From positions 3,038,001-3,102,000 of the forward strand of contig NC_016112.1 in the NCBI RefSeq assembly GCF_000968535.2: a DNA stretch of 64,000 nt, written 5' to 3'. This stretch comes from Methylotuvimicrobium alcaliphilum 20Z. Lineage in GTDB: Bacteria > Pseudomonadota > Gammaproteobacteria > Methylococcales > Methylomonadaceae. Made by a program: the position numbers and the translations under genes. Numbering within the stretch: position 1 is the stretch's first letter; every line of letters starts with the position of its first letter. Of the stretch, positions 5,334 to 50,570 are shown one piece after another. The notes under the pieces are model-generated. The model was not told where the DNA came from. It was given only the letters and a program-made list of their open reading frames with translations, and ran no database searches.

Positions 5334-5560
5334 CTCATCGTTATACATAAGTCAAAAATTACCCTTTTGCAATCTTAACCAATGAGACCTCGATACCATT
5401 TATTGTCACTTCATATTAGCGGATCACCTAACGCTAGCCGAACCGCGTAGGGTACGCTGTGCGTACCATGGTAACCCCGCGATATTCATGTGCCAACCGA
5501 ACCGCCAGGGCACGGCTTTGGTACGCGCAGCGTACCCTACAATTTATGTATAACGATGAG
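5334..5560 (+). repeat. MITE family A, copy 1
   Basis: 227 bp with perfect 17-bp terminal inverted repeats (CTCATCGTTATACATAA). It is flanked by an exact 10-bp direct repeat AGCCCCAGCT, which is half of a REP palindrome. The interior has an inverted pair around GGTACGC and GCGTACC. It has no coding capacity. Other copies are at 16854 and 30938; family B shares the ends. Confidence 0.85.
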
Positions 5561-5712
5561 AGCCCCAGCTTGGGTAACCTGTTCAGGAAGCTCTAGCTTC
5601 CCGACAATCAAGGAAGATTGAACAAGCAAGTCAGGTTTGATTGAGAATGTGCCGAGGTTGCGTCGGTCTCAGGAAGCTGGAGCTTCCGGGGTGTCTTTCC
5701 CAAGCTGGAGCT
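5561..5712. repeat. REP-like palindromes between two MITEs
   Basis: Contains several inverted-repeat units of the form CCAGCTTGGG and GGAAGCTxxAGCTTCC, the same palindromes that flank the RAYT gene at 40210-40743. One unit is split by MITE A on its left and another by MITE I on its right. Confidence 0.6.
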
Positions 5713-5846
5713 CACTGCCATTAAGTTAAGCCGTTCGTGGTGAGCCTGTCGAACCATGGACGGCTTAACTTATCGACCCAGGATTTTTCCATTCACCCTT
5801 CGACAGGCTCAGGGCGAACGGAAAAATCCTTAACTTAATGGCAGTG
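5713..5846 (+). repeat. MITE family I, copy 1
   Basis: 134 bp bounded by CACTGCCATTAAGTTAAG and its reverse complement. It is flanked by an imperfect 11-bp direct repeat (AAGCTGGAGCT / AAGCTGGAACT, the right copy one base away), again REP sequence. A better-preserved copy is at 50391-50529 and a truncated one near 40069. Confidence 0.75.
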
Positions 5847-9298: not shown

Positions 9299-10326
9299 CT
9301 CGCCGTTATACACAAGTATCGGTAAACTTGCTAAACAGAACTTGGAAGCGGTGCTGTTTGATAAATCTGCGGATATTGGACATCAGTGGCTTCGAAATCG
9401 CGACGAAGGCGTCGCTCCCACAAGGGGCCGGAGGCTCTGATAGGGGTAGGGAAGATTTCTCTCCCCTCCCTCCGAACCGTGCATGCGGTTCTCCCGCACA
9501 CGGCTCTCCAGTCGGTGGTTTCCTCATCGGGACAAGCTGGTGAGCAATGGTGTTATTAATTGGTGAACCCCATTACTCCGCGTTACCACGTCAGCCCGCA
9601 AACTCGGTTTGATTCGTTACCTTCGGCTCCCTTCAACGGCTGAGCCTCTTTAAGCCTTTTACCTGAGGTTGGCTTAATGGCCGTGACACCGAACGCTACC
9701 TCGTTTCCACCTTCCTACCCTTCTTTCCTATGGCCGGTTTTGCTAGCCGGCTTTTACCATCTTTTCCCCTCTCGGTTTAGGCTCGTGTTTGTTTTCTCTG
9801 TTTCCGCCTGGTTTCCCAGCGGTGCCACACTGTCCTCGCCTTGCCTTGAGCTTCCTCGACTTACGGTAATATAAGGGTTCTGACTCCTGCCACGGTCACC
9901 TCCGTAACAGGTCTCCCCAGTTTCTTCACAATACCTTCTGAACATTCCACTCCCAACCACAAGGTAGGCCCATTTATCGTTTTATCTGCCACAACAACGT
10001 AAATGATGGTTTTCAGGCTTCGTCGACTCCCAGGGGACTCGCCGCCTTACCCCGCCGAATCGGATTCGCTTTACTGCGGACTGCTCTTTTGCCTCCAGTT
10101 GCTCTCCACCCCACCTCGCGGTGACGCAGTTACTTTCAGCTACGACGTTATGGCTTACGCCGACAGGGACTTACACCCTGCTGATTTTGTGCCCTCCTGG
10201 GCGCACTGGGAGCGATCCCCTGATCGCGATTTCGAAGTCGGGCACGTTGGGCGACAAAAAATGGTATCGAGGTCTCATTGGCTAAGATTGCAAAAGGGTA
10301 ATTTTTGACTTATGTATAATGATGGG
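9299..10326 (+). repeat. MITE family B, copy 1, interrupted by a group II intron
   Basis: Starts CTCGCCGTTATACACAAGT and ends with the inverted end ACTTATGTATAATGATGGG. It is flanked on both sides by the identical 10-bp repeat AGCTCCAGCT (9289-9298 and 10327-10336), so it landed inside the REP palindrome CCCAAGCTCCAGCTTGGG. Without the intron it would be about 261 bp, close to the uninterrupted copy at 34499. The B core holds two long hairpins (TTCGAAATCGCGA arms). Confidence 0.8.
9440..10206 (-). mobile_element. ORF-less group II intron, complete ends
   Basis: Read on the minus strand, the insert starts GTGCGCCCAGGAGGGCAC, matching the GUGYG 5' end of group II introns, and ends CTACCCCTAT, matching the required 3' AY. 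A domain V hairpin lies at 9474-9506: GAGCCGTGTGCGG stem, GAGA loop, ACCGCATGCACGGTTC stem, carrying the catalytic AGC. A domain VI-like purine/pyrimidine stem follows. The empty site is visible in the MITE copy at 34499: GCTCTG joined to TGGGAGCG. At 767 bp it has room for the RNA domains but not for a maturase; no reverse transcriptase frame exists in it. It would need a maturase from elsewhere to splice or move. Confidence 0.85.
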
Positions 10327-16853: not shown

Positions 16854-17073
16854 CTCATCGTTAAACATAAATTGTAGGGTACGCTGCGCGTACCAAAGCC
16901 GTGCCCTGGCGGTTCAATTGGCACATGAATATCGCGGGATTACCATGGTACGCACAGCGTACCCTACGCGGTTCGTCTAGCGTTAGGTGATCCGCTGATG
17001 TTAAGTGACAATAAATGGTATCGAGGTCTCATTGGTTAAGATTGCAAAAGGGTGATTTTTAACTTATGTATAC
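16854..17073 (-). repeat. MITE family A, copy 2, right end truncated
   Basis: Inverted relative to copy 1. The left end CTCATCGTTAAACATAA is intact and sits in the REP sequence CCCAAGCTCCAGCT. The right end stops at ACTTATGTATA, directly against the stop codon of the O-antigen ligase gene, having lost the terminal ACGATGAG. Confidence 0.75.
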
Positions 17074-18346: not shown

Positions 18347-18460
18347 AAGGATATGAATAGATCAAGATAACAAGATTAAATGGCCGCAAAATAGACTTAT
18401 CTGACTTTTCTGGTTCCCACGGTCCTTCGCTCATCGTTATACATAAGTCAAAAATTACCC

Positions 18461-18571
18461 TTCCTATCGTTCCCACGCTCCGGCGTGGGAACGAAGACCG
18501 AGACGCTCTAGCGTCTCGTACCGCTGGAGCGGTACTCAGGCGTTCCCACGCAGAGCCTGGGAACGATAATT
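18461..18571. repeat. Palindromic repeat family H, copy 1
   Basis: Contains paired arms CGTTCCCACGCTCCGGCGTG, AGACGCTCTAGCGTCT, TACCGCTGGAGCGGTA, and closes with GGGAACGATAA. It is preceded by a fragment of a MITE A end (CTCATCGTTATACATAAGTC at 18431). Related copies are near 30920/32798, 34440, 50290 and 52775. Confidence 0.65.
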
Positions 18572-18602
18572 GCCGGGGGGACTGAATAGTTGCCTCGTCG
18601 TT

Positions 18603-19085
18603 ATATACCTTTCGCACTTCAAATTTCGGCAGTGCCTAAGGAGGTGCAGGGGTGTTCGGCAAAGGCTTTGCCGGCATGGAGCCTACATGGACGTATTCAC
18701 CCAGCACCTAAATTCCATAGTCCATTGGCCAAGCGCGCCAAGATTTTTCGCGAAAGCTGAAATGGGGTCCGTCCGATTTCAGCAGCGAAAAATGACTTGG
18801 CGATTATTGCCTTCGGCGGCCCCGATTCGCCCTGCGTCCGTGCCACTACGCCACATCATCGTATACTCGATGCGGCTCCGTAGCACTCCCACAAATGGCT
18901 TTACGCCGTGTCGCGATGCCTTGTATTTTGCCTCCGCCTGCGCTATTCGCGCAGACTCCGGCAAAACACCCGGCGCTACGGCTATCGGGGACTAAAAATC
19001 TTCACTTCGCTAACGCTCCGTTTCCAAGATTTTCAGCGTATGATTAACTATCTTGGATAATTTAGGTGCAGGGTTCACGGCGTCC
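18603..19085. repeat. Repeat family C, copy 3, split by a 314-bp element
   Basis: Inverted relative to 16603-16826. It runs from ACCTTTCGCACTTCAAATTT to GTCCATTGGC, is interrupted at 18730, and resumes at TATGATTAAC. The same sequence is continuous at 16673-16692 on the other strand. Confidence 0.65.
18730..19043. mobile_element. 314-bp perfect repeat, copy 1 (unknown mobile element)
   Basis: Identical base for base to 62975-63288, as far as I can compare by eye. It starts CAAGCGCGCCAAGATTTTTC and ends AAGATTTTCAGCGTATGA. It interrupts repeat family C, whose uninterrupted form is at 16673-16692, so it moved or was copied in. The minus strand has a 61-codon frame but no recognisable protein; both ends carry CCAAGATTTT in direct orientation. 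Type of element unknown. Confidence 0.75.
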
Positions 19086-19377
19086 TGTCAATCGAGCCAC
19101 CACCCCCCCTTCCGACAGTTGTCTAAGTTATTTCATGCTCGTTCCTTAGCTAATGTGACTTCGGTACCATTTATTGTTACCTAACGTACCCGACTTCGAA
19201 ATCGCGATCTGGGGATCGCTCCCACAGAGCACCCTACCCCCTTGTGGGAGCGACGCCTTCGTCGCGATTTCGAAGCCACTGATGTTCAATATCCGCAGAT
19301 TTATCAAACAGCACCGTTTCCAGGTATACGGCGACCTCTGTTTAGCAAGTTTACCGATATTTGGGTATAACGGCGAG
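19067..19377. repeat. Partial MITE D end joined to MITE B, copy 2
   Basis: 19067-19145 matches one half of MITE D (CAATCGAGCCACC ... TTATTTCATGCTCGTTCC). From about 19150 the sequence is MITE B, with the TTCGAAATCGCGA hairpin arms and ending TTGGGTATAACGGCGAG; its left terminal repeat is missing. It fills the gap downstream of ilvE. Confidence 0.6.
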
Positions 19378-30937: not shown

Positions 30938-31165
30938 CTCATCGTTATACATAAGTCAAAAATTACCCTTTTGCAATCTTAGCCAATGAGACCTCAATAC
31001 CATTTACTGTCACTTAACACTCGCGGATCGCCAAGCGCTTGGCGATCCGCGTAGGGTACGCTGTGCGTACCATGGTAACGCCGCAATGTTCATGTGCCAA
31101 CCGAGCCTGCCAGGGCACGGCTTTGGTACGCGCAGCGTACCCTACAATTTATGTATAACGATGAG
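30938..31165 (+). repeat. MITE family A, copy 3
   Basis: 228 bp with perfect 17-bp ends CTCATCGTTATACATAA. It is flanked by near-identical direct repeats CGCTCTGCG and CGCTCTGCC. It landed in a family H palindrome and carries an extra perfect inverted pair, CGGATCGCCAAGCGCTTGGC, in its centre. Confidence 0.85.
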
Positions 31166-34498: not shown

Positions 34499-34769
34499 CT
34501 CGCCGTTATACATAAGTCGTAGATACCGTCTTGCCATCTTGGCGAATGTGACCTCGATACCCTTTATTGTTACTTAACGTACCCGACTTCGAAATCGCGA
34601 CGAAGGCGTCGCTCCCACAAGGGGGCCGGATGCTCTGTGGGAGCGATCCCCAGATCGCGATTTCGAAGCCACTGATGTTCAATATCCGCAGATTTATCAA
34701 ACAACACCGTTCCCATAGGTATACGATGAACTCTGTTTAGCAAGTTTACCGATATTTGTGTATAACGAG
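34499..34769 (+). repeat. MITE family B, copy 3 (intron-free)
   Basis: About 271 bp, from CTCGCCGTTATACATAAGTC to GATATTTGTGTATAACGAG. It is flanked by CGCCGGAGCG on both sides, within a family H palindrome. It contains GCTCTGTGGGAGCGATC, the exact empty site for the group II intron in copy 1. Confidence 0.78.
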
Positions 34770-38639: not shown

Positions 38640-38945
38640 AAATTATATAGCGACTTAAGCCAGGTTCATGGCAGAGCGGGTTGAATAACCATACGCATCA
38701 AGCTAAAAACGACCAACCCGCATCCCGCTCTTTCCCAAGCTCCAGCTTCCAGAGACCGAAACAACCGCAACCAAACCCGACTTGCTCGTTCAATCTGCCT
38801 GATCGTCGGGAAGCTAGAGCTTCCTGAACAGGTTACCCAAGCTGGAGCTTGGGTAACAGCATAAAAGTTTCGACCGTGGCCAAAGCAAGTCGGAACGTTT
38901 GGGGCGGGTTGAATAACCCGCCCCGCGCTAGACTTACCGTATTAT
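38640..38945. repeat. REP palindromes and short hairpins
   Basis: Contains TTTCCCAAGCTCCAGCTTCC, GGGAAGCTAGAGCTTCC, TACCCAAGCTGGAGCTTGGG and GGGGCGGGTTGAATAACCC hairpins, the same palindromes that border the RAYT gene. No gene is visible. Confidence 0.65.
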
Positions 38946-40041: not shown

Positions 40042-40208
40042 ACAAGCTGTTTCCCAAGCTCCAGCTTCACTGCCATTAAGTTAAGGATTTTTCCGTTCGC
40101 CCTGAGCCTGTCGAAGGGTGAATGGAAAAATCCTGGGTCGATAAGTTCAGCTGTTTCCCAAGCTCCAGCTTGGGAAACCCAACCCGGAAGCTCCAGCTTC
40201 CCGAGACC
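40042..40208. repeat. REP palindromes with a truncated MITE I
   Basis: REP units CCCAAGCTCCAGCTT (40054) and TTTCCCAAGCTCCAGCTTGG followed by GGAAGCTCCAGCTTCC (40150-40202). Between them, 40069-40145 is a MITE I fragment (CACTGCCATTAAGTTAAG, then CCGTTCGCC / GGTGAATGG-type arms) lacking its right terminal repeat. Confidence 0.7.
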
Positions 40209-40209
40209 C

Positions 40210-40743
40210 TCACCATTGCCGAATCACTTCGATCATCCCTTCTTGACCTAAATAATTTCGCGCACTGGAATAACGCCAATGTTCCGGCTTATCTACATAG
40301 CCGCGTTTAACGGGGTTTTGATGAATATATTCCAGCTTTTGACGCATAACCTTCTCTGACTCTATTATTTGCGGATGGCTGCCTTCTTCCCAAACCTGAT
40401 AGTCACTCTCATGCTTATGTACTCGTTTAAATAATGCCAGTAATTCCAATAACCTATTTGAACGATGCTGTTCAAGATGGGCAATGAGTTGTTTTGCCGT
40501 GTATGACTTAAATCGCTGGATATCACGGCTTAAATTTTCGGAAGCGGCAATCAGATGTAAGTGATTTTCAAGGATGACATAACCGTATAGTTGAAAATTG
40601 TCATTGCGCTGGAGATAACGCCAGGAGTCAAGCACGATATCGACTAACTTTGGATTTGTGAACAATGGCAGCCAGTGGTTTATTGTTGCTGTCAGGAAAT
40701 GCGGGCAAGGGTTGGTTAACACTCGATAACTGCTTCTTGGCAT
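40210..40743 (-). CDS. REP-associated tyrosine transposase (RAYT)
   Basis: 177 residues from ATG at 40743 (MPRSSYRV). The open frame runs back to 40905, but that extension is REP sequence and reads into the amidotransferase gene on the opposite frame. HUH nuclease motif H-x-H is at residues 61 and 63 (LENHLHLIA), the candidate catalytic Tyr is 81 (RFKSYTAKQLI), and the family C-terminal YIHQNPVKRGYV...HWRYSSARNY is present. RAYTs bind and cleave REP hairpins as single strands and are thought to spread them. REP palindromes lie directly on both sides of the gene. Not a full IS200/IS605 element. Confidence 0.92.
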   Translation of the reverse strand: MPRSSYRVLTNPCPHFLTATINHWLPLFTNPKLVDIVLDSWRYLQRNDNFQLYGYVILENHLHLIAASENLSRDIQRFKSYTAKQLIAHLEQHRSNRLLELLALFKRVHKHESDYQVWEEGSHPQIIESEKVMRQKLEYIHQNPVKRGYVDKPEHWRYSSARNYLGQEGMIEVIRQW

Positions 40744-40759
40744 GTTTTTGCACCTTAAG

Positions 40760-40845
40760 TAGAACGGGAAGCTAGAGCTTCCGGAACCGGTTTCCCAAGC
40801 TGGAGCTTGGGAAACAGCAAAAATCTGGAGCTTGGGAAACCGCGA
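40760..40845. repeat. REP palindromes upstream of the RAYT gene
   Basis: GGGAAGCTAGAGCTTCC, then TTTCCCAAGCTGGAGCTTGG, then a half unit CTGGAGCTTGGGAAAC. Together with 40042-40208 they bracket the RAYT gene, a typical BIME-like arrangement. Confidence 0.75.
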
Positions 40846-48949: not shown

Positions 48950-49618
48950 ATGACCACCGTAACCCGTGATGAAGTTTGGGAAATGTTTCGCGAAGTGGCA
49001 CGCCGCTTCGAAGAGACCGATAAGCAATTCAAAGAAACCGATCGAAAATTTCAAGAAACTACTAAGCAATTCAAAGAGACCGATCGGAAGTTTCAAGAAA
49101 CTACTAAGCAATTCAAAGACACCGACCGCAAGTTTCAAGAAACCGACCGTAAATTCCAAAACACCGAACGCCTAGTTAAAGAAGTCAGCAAAAGCATCGG
49201 CGACCTGGGCAACCGATTAGGCGAATTCGTACAAGAAATGGTCCGTCCGGCACTCGTGAACTTATTTCGCGAGCGAAACATCGATGTGCATGAAGTCCAT
49301 CCGAACATCTATGCCGAAAGAAACGGCGAATCGGCCGAAATCGATCTATTGGTCGTTAACGAACAAACCGCGATTGCCGTAGAATGCAAAAGCCAAATGA
49401 CCATTGACGACGTCAACGAACATTTGAACCGACTGGAAAAATTGAAACGCTTATTGCCAAAATACCGGGATGTCGAACTGATGGGCGCAGTTGCCGCAAT
49501 GGTCATGCCGAATGACGTTGCCCGCTATGCATACCGCAAAGGCCTATACGTACTCGCCCAAAGCGGCAACACCGTCTTGATCCGCAACGACGGCAAATTT
49601 TCACCGAAAATTTGGTAA
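48950..49618 (+). CDS. Coiled-coil PD-(D/E)XK nuclease-like protein A
   Basis: 222 residues from ATG at 48950 (MTTVTRDEVW), preceded by AGGAGCAAG; an 87-bp longer frame has no support. Residues 18-75 are eight tandem 7-residue units of the type ETDRKFQ/KETTKQF, predicted coiled coil, encoded by a tandem DNA repeat. Then SKSIGDLGNRLG and a nuclease core with GESAEIDLLVV and AVECKSQM (D ... E-x-K). The C-terminal third ends GNTVLIRNDGKFSPKIW. DUF3782-like. Probable DNA-binding or nuclease role; function unproven. Close paralog at 50668, and a third tail at 52935. Confidence 0.8.
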   Translation: MTTVTRDEVWEMFREVARRFEETDKQFKETDRKFQETTKQFKETDRKFQETTKQFKDTDRKFQETDRKFQNTERLVKEVSKSIGDLGNRLGEFVQEMVRPALVNLFRERNIDVHEVHPNIYAERNGESAEIDLLVVNEQTAIAVECKSQMTIDDVNEHLNRLEKLKRLLPKYRDVELMGAVAAMVMPNDVARYAYRKGLYVLAQSGNTVLIRNDGKFSPKIW

Positions 49619-50285: not shown

Positions 50286-50570
50286 CCCCCCTATCGTTCC
50301 CACGCTCCAGCGTGGGAATGCAGCCCGAGACGCTCTAGCGTCTCGTACCGCTGGAGCGGTACTCAGACATTCCCACGCAGAGCATCACTGCCATTAAGTT
50401 AAGGGAAACCCGTCATTCCGCCATGGATTGGCTGAATCCAGTGCCATGGATGGCAGGCTTTTGAGGCACATTCGAGCCTGAATGCCAACATTACTTATTC
50501 TGTGACGGCTTAACTTAATGGCAGTGACGCAGAGCATGGGAACGAGAATGGTCGTGGAACTGAATACTCA
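50286..50570. repeat. Family H palindrome interrupted by MITE I
   Basis: 50286-50390 and 50530-50560 are one family H repeat (CGTTCCCACGCTCCAGCGTG, AGACGCTCTAGCGTCT, TACCGCTGGAGCGGTA). It is split at ACGCAGAGCAT, which appears on both sides of the MITE I insert. Confidence 0.75.
50391..50529 (+). repeat. MITE family I, copy 3
   Basis: About 139 bp, from CACTGCCATTAAGTTAAG to its exact inverse. It is flanked by an exact 11-bp repeat ACGCAGAGCAT. The interior carries a CATTCCGCCATGGAT segment that also occurs at 55192 and 53935. Confidence 0.85.

What the first reader, a model, noticed from the sequence alone, without database searches (positions are those of the whole stretch)
40042..40845. 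A RAYT gene in REP palindromes whose copies serve as landing pads for MITEs
The RAYT gene (40210-40743) is bracketed by CCCAAGCTCCAGCTTGGG and GGAAGCTCCAGCTTCC units. The same units occur at about 5.6, 9.3, 10.3, 38.8, 51.35, 53.25, 53.4 and 55.3 kb. At least four MITEs of two families (A/B at 5334, 9299, 16854; I at 5713) sit inside such a unit, each splitting the palindrome and duplicating half of it. This suggests a hierarchy: RAYT spreads REPs, then REPs attract other transposons, perhaps because their hairpins are preferred targets or because insertion there is harmless.
Basis: partly seen in the sequence, partly recalled or inferred. Interest (0 to 1): 0.75.

Follow-up and report, generated by a model that had tools for sequence, protein, structure and literature searches.

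The report
Mini-transposons that land inside RAYT palindromes
In this methane-eating bacterium, a family of tiny transposons inserts almost only at one exact spot inside the short palindromes that surround an unrelated transposase-like gene, so one kind of selfish DNA serves as the landing pad for another.

Summary
The window (Methylotuvimicrobium) carries a RAYT gene between inverted palindromes. In 62 of 73 fetched MITE-A loci of this genome an end lies at the same point of a CCCA...TGGG palindrome. Four core types are hit. Neighbouring palindromes with other outer arms hold 3 ends against 90. Target duplications are 9 bp in 17-nt palindromes (8 of 8) and 10 bp in 18-nt ones (15, one of them a hybrid site). 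Four relatives' loci keep the empty palindrome, overlaps 9, 9, 9 and 10 nt. At one locus two congeners lack the palindrome unit, a third has it empty, and this genome has it with MITE-A: palindrome first, MITE second. Other genera show the same habit.

MITE-I is not specific: 30 of 70 loci. The signal is the outer arm CCCA/TGGG rather than a hairpin as such. The palindromes lack the GTAG head of classical REPs; spread by RAYT is plausible, unproven. MITE-A's transposase was not found; its ends fit the IS50/Tn5 subgroup. REP targeting by insertion sequences is long known, so this is a new variant.

The parts
40210..40743 (-). RAYT (REP-associated tyrosine transposase), 177 aa
   Evidence: NF047646, 100.4 bits against cut-off 80; PDB 4er8 TnpArep, E 0.0022
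40153..40178 (.). outer palindrome A, GTTTCCCAAGCTCCAGCTTGGGAAAC, left of RAYT
40186..40201 (.). inner palindrome B, GGAAGCTCCAGCTTCC, left of RAYT
40767..40782 (.). inner palindrome B', GGAAGCTAGAGCTTCC, right of RAYT
40790..40815 (.). outer palindrome A', GTTTCCCAAGCTGGAGCTTGGGAAAC, right of RAYT
40068..40154 (+). truncated MITE-I inserted after CCCAAGCTCCAGCTT
   Evidence: (pair I6)
5334..5560 (.). MITE-A, 227 bp, in palindrome A; TSD AGCCCCAGCT (10 bp)
5561..5712 (.). rest of a REPIN-like unit A-B-spacer-B'-A' whose A holds MITE-A and whose A' holds MITE-I
5713..5846 (.). MITE-I, 134 bp, in palindrome A'; TSD 12 bp, 11 of 12 matching; a paralogous unit at G000:C2:3239114 has the same palindrome without it
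9299..10326 (.). element of 1028 bp with MITE-A ends; TSD AGCTCCAGCT
16854..17072 (+). MITE-A, left end in CCCAAGCTCCAGCT; right end not intact
   Evidence: (pair I1)
18430..19377 (.). MITE-A ends, both in a CCCACGGTCCTCCGTGGG-type palindrome
30938..31165 (.). MITE-A, 228 bp; left end in CCCACGCTCTGCG; TSD 9 bp, 8 of 9 matching; right half of the palindrome not intact
34499..34517 (+). MITE-A left end in CCCACGCCGGAGCG
50386..50526 (.). MITE-I, 141 bp, in CCCACGCAGAGCATGGG; TSD ACGCAGAGCAT (11 bp)
38734..38853 (.). REPIN-like unit without a MITE; its left outer palindrome is a hybrid (CCCAAGCTCCAGCTTCC)

Best explanation
MITE-A is a non-autonomous DNA transposon whose (unseen) transposase picks its target by the outer arms of RAYT-linked palindromes. 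It joins the transposon ends directly 3' of CCCA on each strand (CCCA^N9-10^TGGG), so the palindrome core is duplicated and the MITE ends up in its middle. The outer arms are what the types that are hit have in common, so the element keeps its landing pads when the core changes. The stagger is 9 bp in 17-nt palindromes and 10 bp in 18-nt ones, as if each half-site fixes its own cut. The palindromes are probably spread by RAYT proteins, which they flank. Shown: the exact, recurring insertion point, the duplications, empty sites, the order of events at one locus, the same habit in other genera, and the near-absence from neighbouring palindromes. Inferred: recognition by transposase contact with the arms, an IS50/Tn5-like transposase acting in trans, and RAYT-driven spread.
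For: 93 of 110 fetched MITE-A ends lie at the fixed point in a known palindrome half (up to 4 mismatches) against 45 of 20,000 random positions; 90 of them are CCCA types (33, 27, 16, 14), 2 B, 1 P2, 0 P3. By locus: 62 of 73 in CCCA palindromes, 3 in B/P2, 8 in none. Duplications with at most one mismatch in 23 of 34 paired elements, 8 of 9 bp and 15 of 10 bp; the eight 9-bp cases are 17-nt types, the 10-bp cases 18-nt types, one of these (1700873) a hybrid site (Fisher 2e-6 counting the hybrid as 18-nt). Clean empty sites at 4 of 30 relatives' loci, overlaps 9, 9, 9, 10; a reciprocal case; a locus with unit absent in G002 and G003, unit empty in G005, unit plus MITE-A in G000. Other genomes: 47 of 66 ends under a strict rule, null 0.83%; G019, another genus, 27 of 30. 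Intact B palindromes are common: 103 exact matches. The ends fit the IS50 subgroup consensus printed in PMC2266710.
Against: No autonomous MITE-A relative was found in this genome: the Tn5-like family NF033590 gives one weak plasmid match (62.7 bits, cut-off 160). Part of the neglect of B and P3 could reflect shorter stems (7 bp against 10-12). Eight of 73 loci are in none of the palindromes, and a clear insertion outside them, TSD CCTATAAGG, exists in G002. Some loci are copies of one event: 480 bp shared at 99.6% by 3043334 and 3239114; a tandem triple near 3801 kb. A stricter palindrome test passes only 63 of 110 ends. Variable duplication length is already known in the IS4 family (PMC2266710).
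Confidence: 0.86

Rival explanations
1. The transposase recognises a structure (cruciform or hairpin) rather than the CCCA/TGGG sequence.
For: The main targets are long palindromes and the cuts are symmetric about the axis; the CCCA palindromes have the longer stems, 10-12 bp where measured at RAYT loci of this genome.
Against: P2 palindromes (CGAGACGCTCTAGCGTCTCG, 8-9-bp stem) sit in the same clusters, 15 intact in the sample, with 1 MITE-A end assigned; B 35 intact with 2; P3 15 intact with 0. The cut follows CCCA across four cores.
Confidence: 0.2
2. MITEs insert widely but survive only in palindromes because insertion there is harmless.
For: REPs are extragenic (general knowledge).
Against: A single insertion point in 90 ends; adjacent palindromes of the same clusters nearly empty; MITE-I in the same genome is found in many other places.
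Confidence: 0.04
3. The palindrome halves are part of the MITE, or MITE-carrying blocks are copied by RAYT or recombination, so that few true insertions occurred.
For: 3043334 and 3239114 share a MITE-containing block at 99.6% identity with different outer flanks; tandem triple near 3801 kb; a left flank of 2523710 recurs at 2449168.
Against: Palindrome type differs between copies but usually agrees on both sides; duplications; empty palindromes in G002, G004 and G005. Of 23 paired elements tested, 21 have at least one flank (200 nt) without a second match in the 297-kb sample; the whole genome was not compared.
Confidence: 0.07
4. The 448-aa IS4-family transposase found between MITE-A ends mobilises MITE-A.
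For: It lies between MITE-A ends at 3178349-3180881 and, broken, at 1705285-1706952.
Against: It belongs to a separate 1432-bp IS with its own ends CATAAGCGCCAACTTAAG; 6 of its 7 full-length copies in this genome have no MITE-A ends in the 1.5 kb held on either side; G003, G005, G009 and G019 have MITE-A ends but no such gene at E 1e-20.
Confidence: 0.03

Closest known systems
REP-targeting insertion sequences ISRm22, ISRm19, ISPsy8, ISPa11, ISPpu9, ISPpu10 (Tobes and Pareja 2006, PMC1525189; Results section and passages seen)
   Same: Every copy inserted at one point of a REP; ISRm22 and ISPsy8 at a palindromy axis; the IS4 family (ISRm22) among the five families listed
   Different: Whole insertion sequences, 4-9 copies where the Results give a number, each in one REP kind with one repeat length (6 bp for ISRm22); here a MITE at 62 loci uses four palindrome types by their common outer arms and duplicates 9 or 10 bp
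IS50/Tn5 subgroup of the IS4 family (PMC2266710, passages seen)
   Same: MITE-A end CTCATCGTTATACATAAGT fits the printed end consensus CW------Y---CA-A--W- (compared by eye); direct repeats there 8-9 bp; a Tn5-like IS in G002 has ends CATCCCGTTATACACAACT
   Different: No transposase for MITE-A found; 10-bp duplications lie outside 8-9; strong target choice
RAYT/REP and REPIN systems (PMC2817692 and PMC3733652, passages seen; REPIN paper PMC3116915, listing only)
   Same: RAYT flanked by inverted palindromes; dispersed units with palindromes at both ends
   Different: No GTAG head (0 of 66 palindrome ends); may be closer to the RAYTs flanked by inverted repeats unrelated to GTAG in PMC3733652
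IS1397 and IS621 in E. coli REPs (seen in the reference list of PMC1525189; bridge RNA of IS110 elements in PMC11208160, listing only)
   Same: Insertion sequences that choose REPs
   Different: Other transposase classes; I expect no bridge RNA for an IS4-type element (recalled, not tested)

Membership tests
RAYT (REP-associated tyrosine transposase) | sequence match to the family model | tested here: met
   NF047646 at 100.4 bits, cut-off 80; PDB 4er8 TnpArep E 0.0022
RAYT (REP-associated tyrosine transposase) | gene flanked by two inverted palindromes | tested here: met
   Window: A-B-RAYT-B'-A'. Over 20 RAYT loci (this genome and 19 relatives) a CCCA...TGGG palindrome lies within 120 nt in 20, on both sides in 15
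RAYT (REP-associated tyrosine transposase) | cleaves or moves its palindromes | not testable with these tools
   needs an assay
Classical REP | GTAG (or GTGG) head | tested here: not met
   0 of 66 CCCA palindrome ends; GTAG in 1 of 70 B ends
Classical REP | short palindrome in many copies per genome | tested here: met
   175 exact matches of CCCAMGCN{2,5}GCKTGGG, control 0
MITE | short element, terminal inverted repeats, no transposase, target duplication | tested here: met
   many copies of 226-234 bp; duplication in 23 of 34 paired elements
IS50/Tn5 subgroup (IS4 family) | terminal sequence consensus | tested here: met
   read by eye against the consensus printed in PMC2266710
IS50/Tn5 subgroup (IS4 family) | direct repeats of 8-9 bp | tested here: inconclusive
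   8 of 9 bp, 15 of 10 bp
IS50/Tn5 subgroup (IS4 family) | autonomous relative with its transposase and the same ends | tested here: inconclusive
   none found in this genome; G002 has a Tn5-like IS with similar, not identical, ends
REP-targeting transposable element | insertion at one fixed point of the REP in nearly all copies | tested here: met
   MITE-A 62 of 73 loci; MITE-I only 30 of 70

The most novel reading that the evidence does not exclude
A transposon family in methanotrophs has specialised on the one conserved part of RAYT-linked palindromes. It reads the two CCCA half-sites separately, so the palindrome's own length sets whether 9 or 10 bp are duplicated. It is thus a second-order parasite whose targets are renewed and spread by RAYTs, and it has kept pace with palindrome turnover across genera.
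Probability: 0.4. Interest if true: 0.7.

Novelty: new variant of a known kind. Interest (0 to 1): 0.5.

Why it matters
It is a natural target-choice experiment with 62 loci in one genome and built-in controls (neighbouring palindromes with similar cores). It shows a DNA transposon specialised on the repeats of a different, single-strand type of transposase, which links two layers of selfish DNA. The match between target length and duplication length is a testable statement about how such a transposase holds its target.

Tried and rejected
1. The 448-aa IS4-family transposase between MITE-A ends was first taken as the mobiliser; two searches showed it to belong to a separate, nested IS, so that idea was dropped. 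2. A stricter palindrome test passed 63 of 110 A ends and 39 of 121 I ends (null 0.085% and 0.05%), because decayed copies failed; the anchored comparison with known palindrome halves replaced it. 3. The anchored test misses MITE-I copies that sit in palindromes in another register (5713, 4002791), so 30 of 70 is a lower bound. 4. Of 21 loci with Tn5-like transposase matches that were checked (of 30 fetched), 19 had no MITE-A-like end nearby; G002 (L349) and G032 (L368) had one each with 2 mismatches. 5. An empty site was sought first at window 9299: G002, G003 and G005 carry an insertion at that place too, and G004 is rearranged there. 6. One search used a position filter that left out L146 altogether; one search repeated the palindrome check over all 20 loci. 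7. Papers: nothing on REP-targeted MITEs in methanotrophs was seen in the searches (open-access library only; no search aimed at duplication length alone). 8. Not listed or not fetched: searches list only the first 100 or so of 125 and 149 places, the most decayed ones being cut; the counts rest on 110 A ends (up to 4 mismatches) and 121 I ends (up to 3) found in the fetched loci. The locus count uses the 105 A ends with up to 3 mismatches. The null was drawn from the same palindrome-rich sample.

Full report
What is there. The window is G000:C2:3038001-3102000 of a 4.80-Mb, two-contig genome. The RAYT at 40210-40743 (-) matches NF047646 above cut-off and, weakly, PDB 4er8, TnpArep (E 0.0022). 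It is enclosed as A-B-RAYT-B'-A', where A is GTTTCCCAAGCTCCAGCTTGGGAAAC and B is GGAAGCTCCAGCTTCC. The same order, with a spacer in place of the gene, forms dispersed units with similar spacers (five printed). The genome has 8 matches to the RAYT family, 5 above cut-off. Of 20 RAYT loci (this genome and 19 relatives) all 20 have a CCCA...TGGG palindrome within 120 nt of the gene, 15 on both sides. The core varies with the RAYT: AAGC in the loci at 68-100% identity, mostly ACGC types in those at 54-60%, with exceptions (G045 AAGT, G007 AAGC, G002 ACGG).

Are these REPs? By copy number and RAYT link, yes: 175 exact matches of CCCAMGCN{2,5}GCKTGGG, control 0. By the GTAG head, no: 0 of 66 palindrome ends. 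PMC3733652 (passages) describes RAYTs flanked by inverted repeats unrelated to GTAG; this may be the better heading.

MITE-A. The end pattern CTCRYCGTTATACAYAAGT has 62+63 matches at up to 3 mismatches in the genome, control 3+1. In the fetched loci 110 ends were found at up to 4 mismatches. 93 of 110 lie at the fixed point in a known palindrome half, against 45 of 20,000 random positions of the same sample. Of the 93, 90 are in CCCA types, 2 in B, 1 in P2, 0 in P3. Intact palindromes in the same sample: 44 CCCA types, 35 B, 15 P2, 15 P3 (Fisher p 1.8e-19 for 90:3 against 44:65; split palindromes are not counted as intact, and ends of one element are not independent). By locus, with ends of up to 3 mismatches: 73 loci, 62 in CCCA palindromes (21 AAGCT, 20 of the 17-nt type, 12 ACGC 18-nt, 9 ACGG), 3 in B/P2, 8 in none; both ends lie in one of these palindromes in 27 of 32 paired elements.

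Duplications. Of 34 paired elements, 23 show a duplication with at most one mismatch: 8 of 9 bp, in CCCA[CGCTCTGCG]TGGG, its complement or a close variant (at 3068938 the right half is not intact), and 15 of 10 bp in 18-nt palindromes, among them the hybrid site 1700873 with a B-like left half. The other 11 have no clear duplication; some of these pairs join ends that do not belong together (3056594) or have halves of different palindromes (3178349).

Empty sites. Nine flank pieces were sought in four congeners: 36 matches, 30 fetched and aligned. Four loci hold the intact palindrome where G000 has MITE-A: G002 (4021408), G004 (1439763) and G005 (4516463) with 9-nt overlaps, G005 (4584147) with 10 nt. 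Two lack the MITE but have an altered palindrome (L232, L235); one has an intact palindrome in an inverted unit (L220); two lack palindrome and MITE alike (L229, L233); five align through the insertion (L207, L212, L223, L228, L231); two align with part of it (L214, L219); the other 14 do not align across the junction. In reverse, G002 has a MITE-A in a palindrome that is empty in G000 at 4021756, again with 9 nt.

Order of events. At 4516463, G002 and G003 have neither palindrome nor MITE (...GCATTAAATG|TAGCCGTG... in G002), G005 has the palindrome unit, G000 the unit with MITE-A in it; in G000 TTAAATG stands on both sides of the unit. Loss in G002 and G003 is the alternative.

Other genomes. 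Thirteen of 61 genomes (G000 included) have MITE-A ends at up to 1 mismatch. In the 12 others, 47 of 66 sampled ends pass a strict rule (CCCA with at most 1 mismatch at the right distance and a palindromic core) that passes 0.83% of random positions; the same rule passes 66 of 110 in G000. G019, another genus, gives 27 of 30, with cores such as CGCGCCGCG not met among the G000 insertions; the other 11 genomes are represented by 1 to 5 ends each. A clear exception is in G002, TSD CCTATAAGG, outside any such palindrome.

MITE-I. 82+67 ends at up to 2 mismatches in the genome. In the fetched loci 49 of 121 ends, or 30 of 70 loci, are in a palindrome at the anchored point, 27 of the 30 in the 17-nt type. 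Of 51 paired elements 39 show duplications: 20 of 11 bp, 15 of these in the 17-nt palindrome, and 19 of 12 bp, 17 of these with TA at the centre of the left copy (counted). The copy at 5713 is a true palindrome insertion: the paralogous unit at 3239114 has the palindrome without it. So MITE-I is enriched in palindromes (null 27 of 20,000) but not specific to them.

Mechanism. The insertion point is directly after CCCA on both strands whatever the core. A target read as two CCCA half-sites explains four core types, two duplication lengths and the neglect of neighbouring palindromes. Stem length is a partial confounder for B and P3, less so for P2. The transposase is unknown. The MITE-A end fits the IS50 subgroup consensus (PMC2266710), and a Tn5-like IS in G002 shares the GTTATACACAA box, but no such gene with MITE-A ends was found. 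The 448-aa IS4-family transposase between some MITE-A ends belongs to a nested, separate IS.

Known or new. That insertion sequences of five families, IS4 among them, choose REPs, some at one point in every copy, is established (PMC1525189, Results section and passages). Variable duplication length in the IS4 family is in print too (PMC2266710, passages). As far as the searches show, not described before are a MITE family with this habit, the use of the outer arms across several palindrome types and genera, and the tie between target length and duplication length (for the last no dedicated search was made).

Noticed in passing
G000:C2:3043234 and 3239014 onwards (window 5234 onwards): A block of at least 480 bp with a palindrome unit and its MITE-A is present twice at 99.6% identity with different outer flanks, so a MITE-carrying unit has itself been copied.
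   Followed up: partly
G000:C2:4516395-4516764, with G002, G003 and G005: The palindrome unit itself looks like an insertion: absent in G002 and G003, with TTAAATG on both sides in G000.
   Followed up: partly
L317 1449-2880 (G000:C2, around 3179407-3180750): A 1432-bp IS4-family insertion sequence with ends CATAAGCGCCAACTTAAG; seven full-length copies in this genome, one with a stop, one nested between MITE-A ends.
   Followed up: partly
G020: 45 matches to that same IS transposase in one genome, many with stop codons: a decayed expansion.
   Followed up: no
window 5713, 40068, 50386 and genome-wide: MITE-I's 12-bp duplications are nearly all centred on TA, while its 11-bp ones are mostly in the 17-nt palindrome: two target modes for one element.
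   Followed up: partly
L031 (G000:C2:530766-532118): A second RAYT has CCCACGCAGAGCGTGGG palindromes upstream and a MITE-A in a palindrome of the same type downstream.
   Followed up: partly
window 49011-49185: Array of 21-nt repeats amid larger repeated blocks at about 47.3-53.2 kb.
   Followed up: no
window 18461-18560 and 50288-50403: A second compound unit of four palindromes (ACGC types); in the copies seen, MITEs sit in its CCCA-type members.
   Followed up: partly
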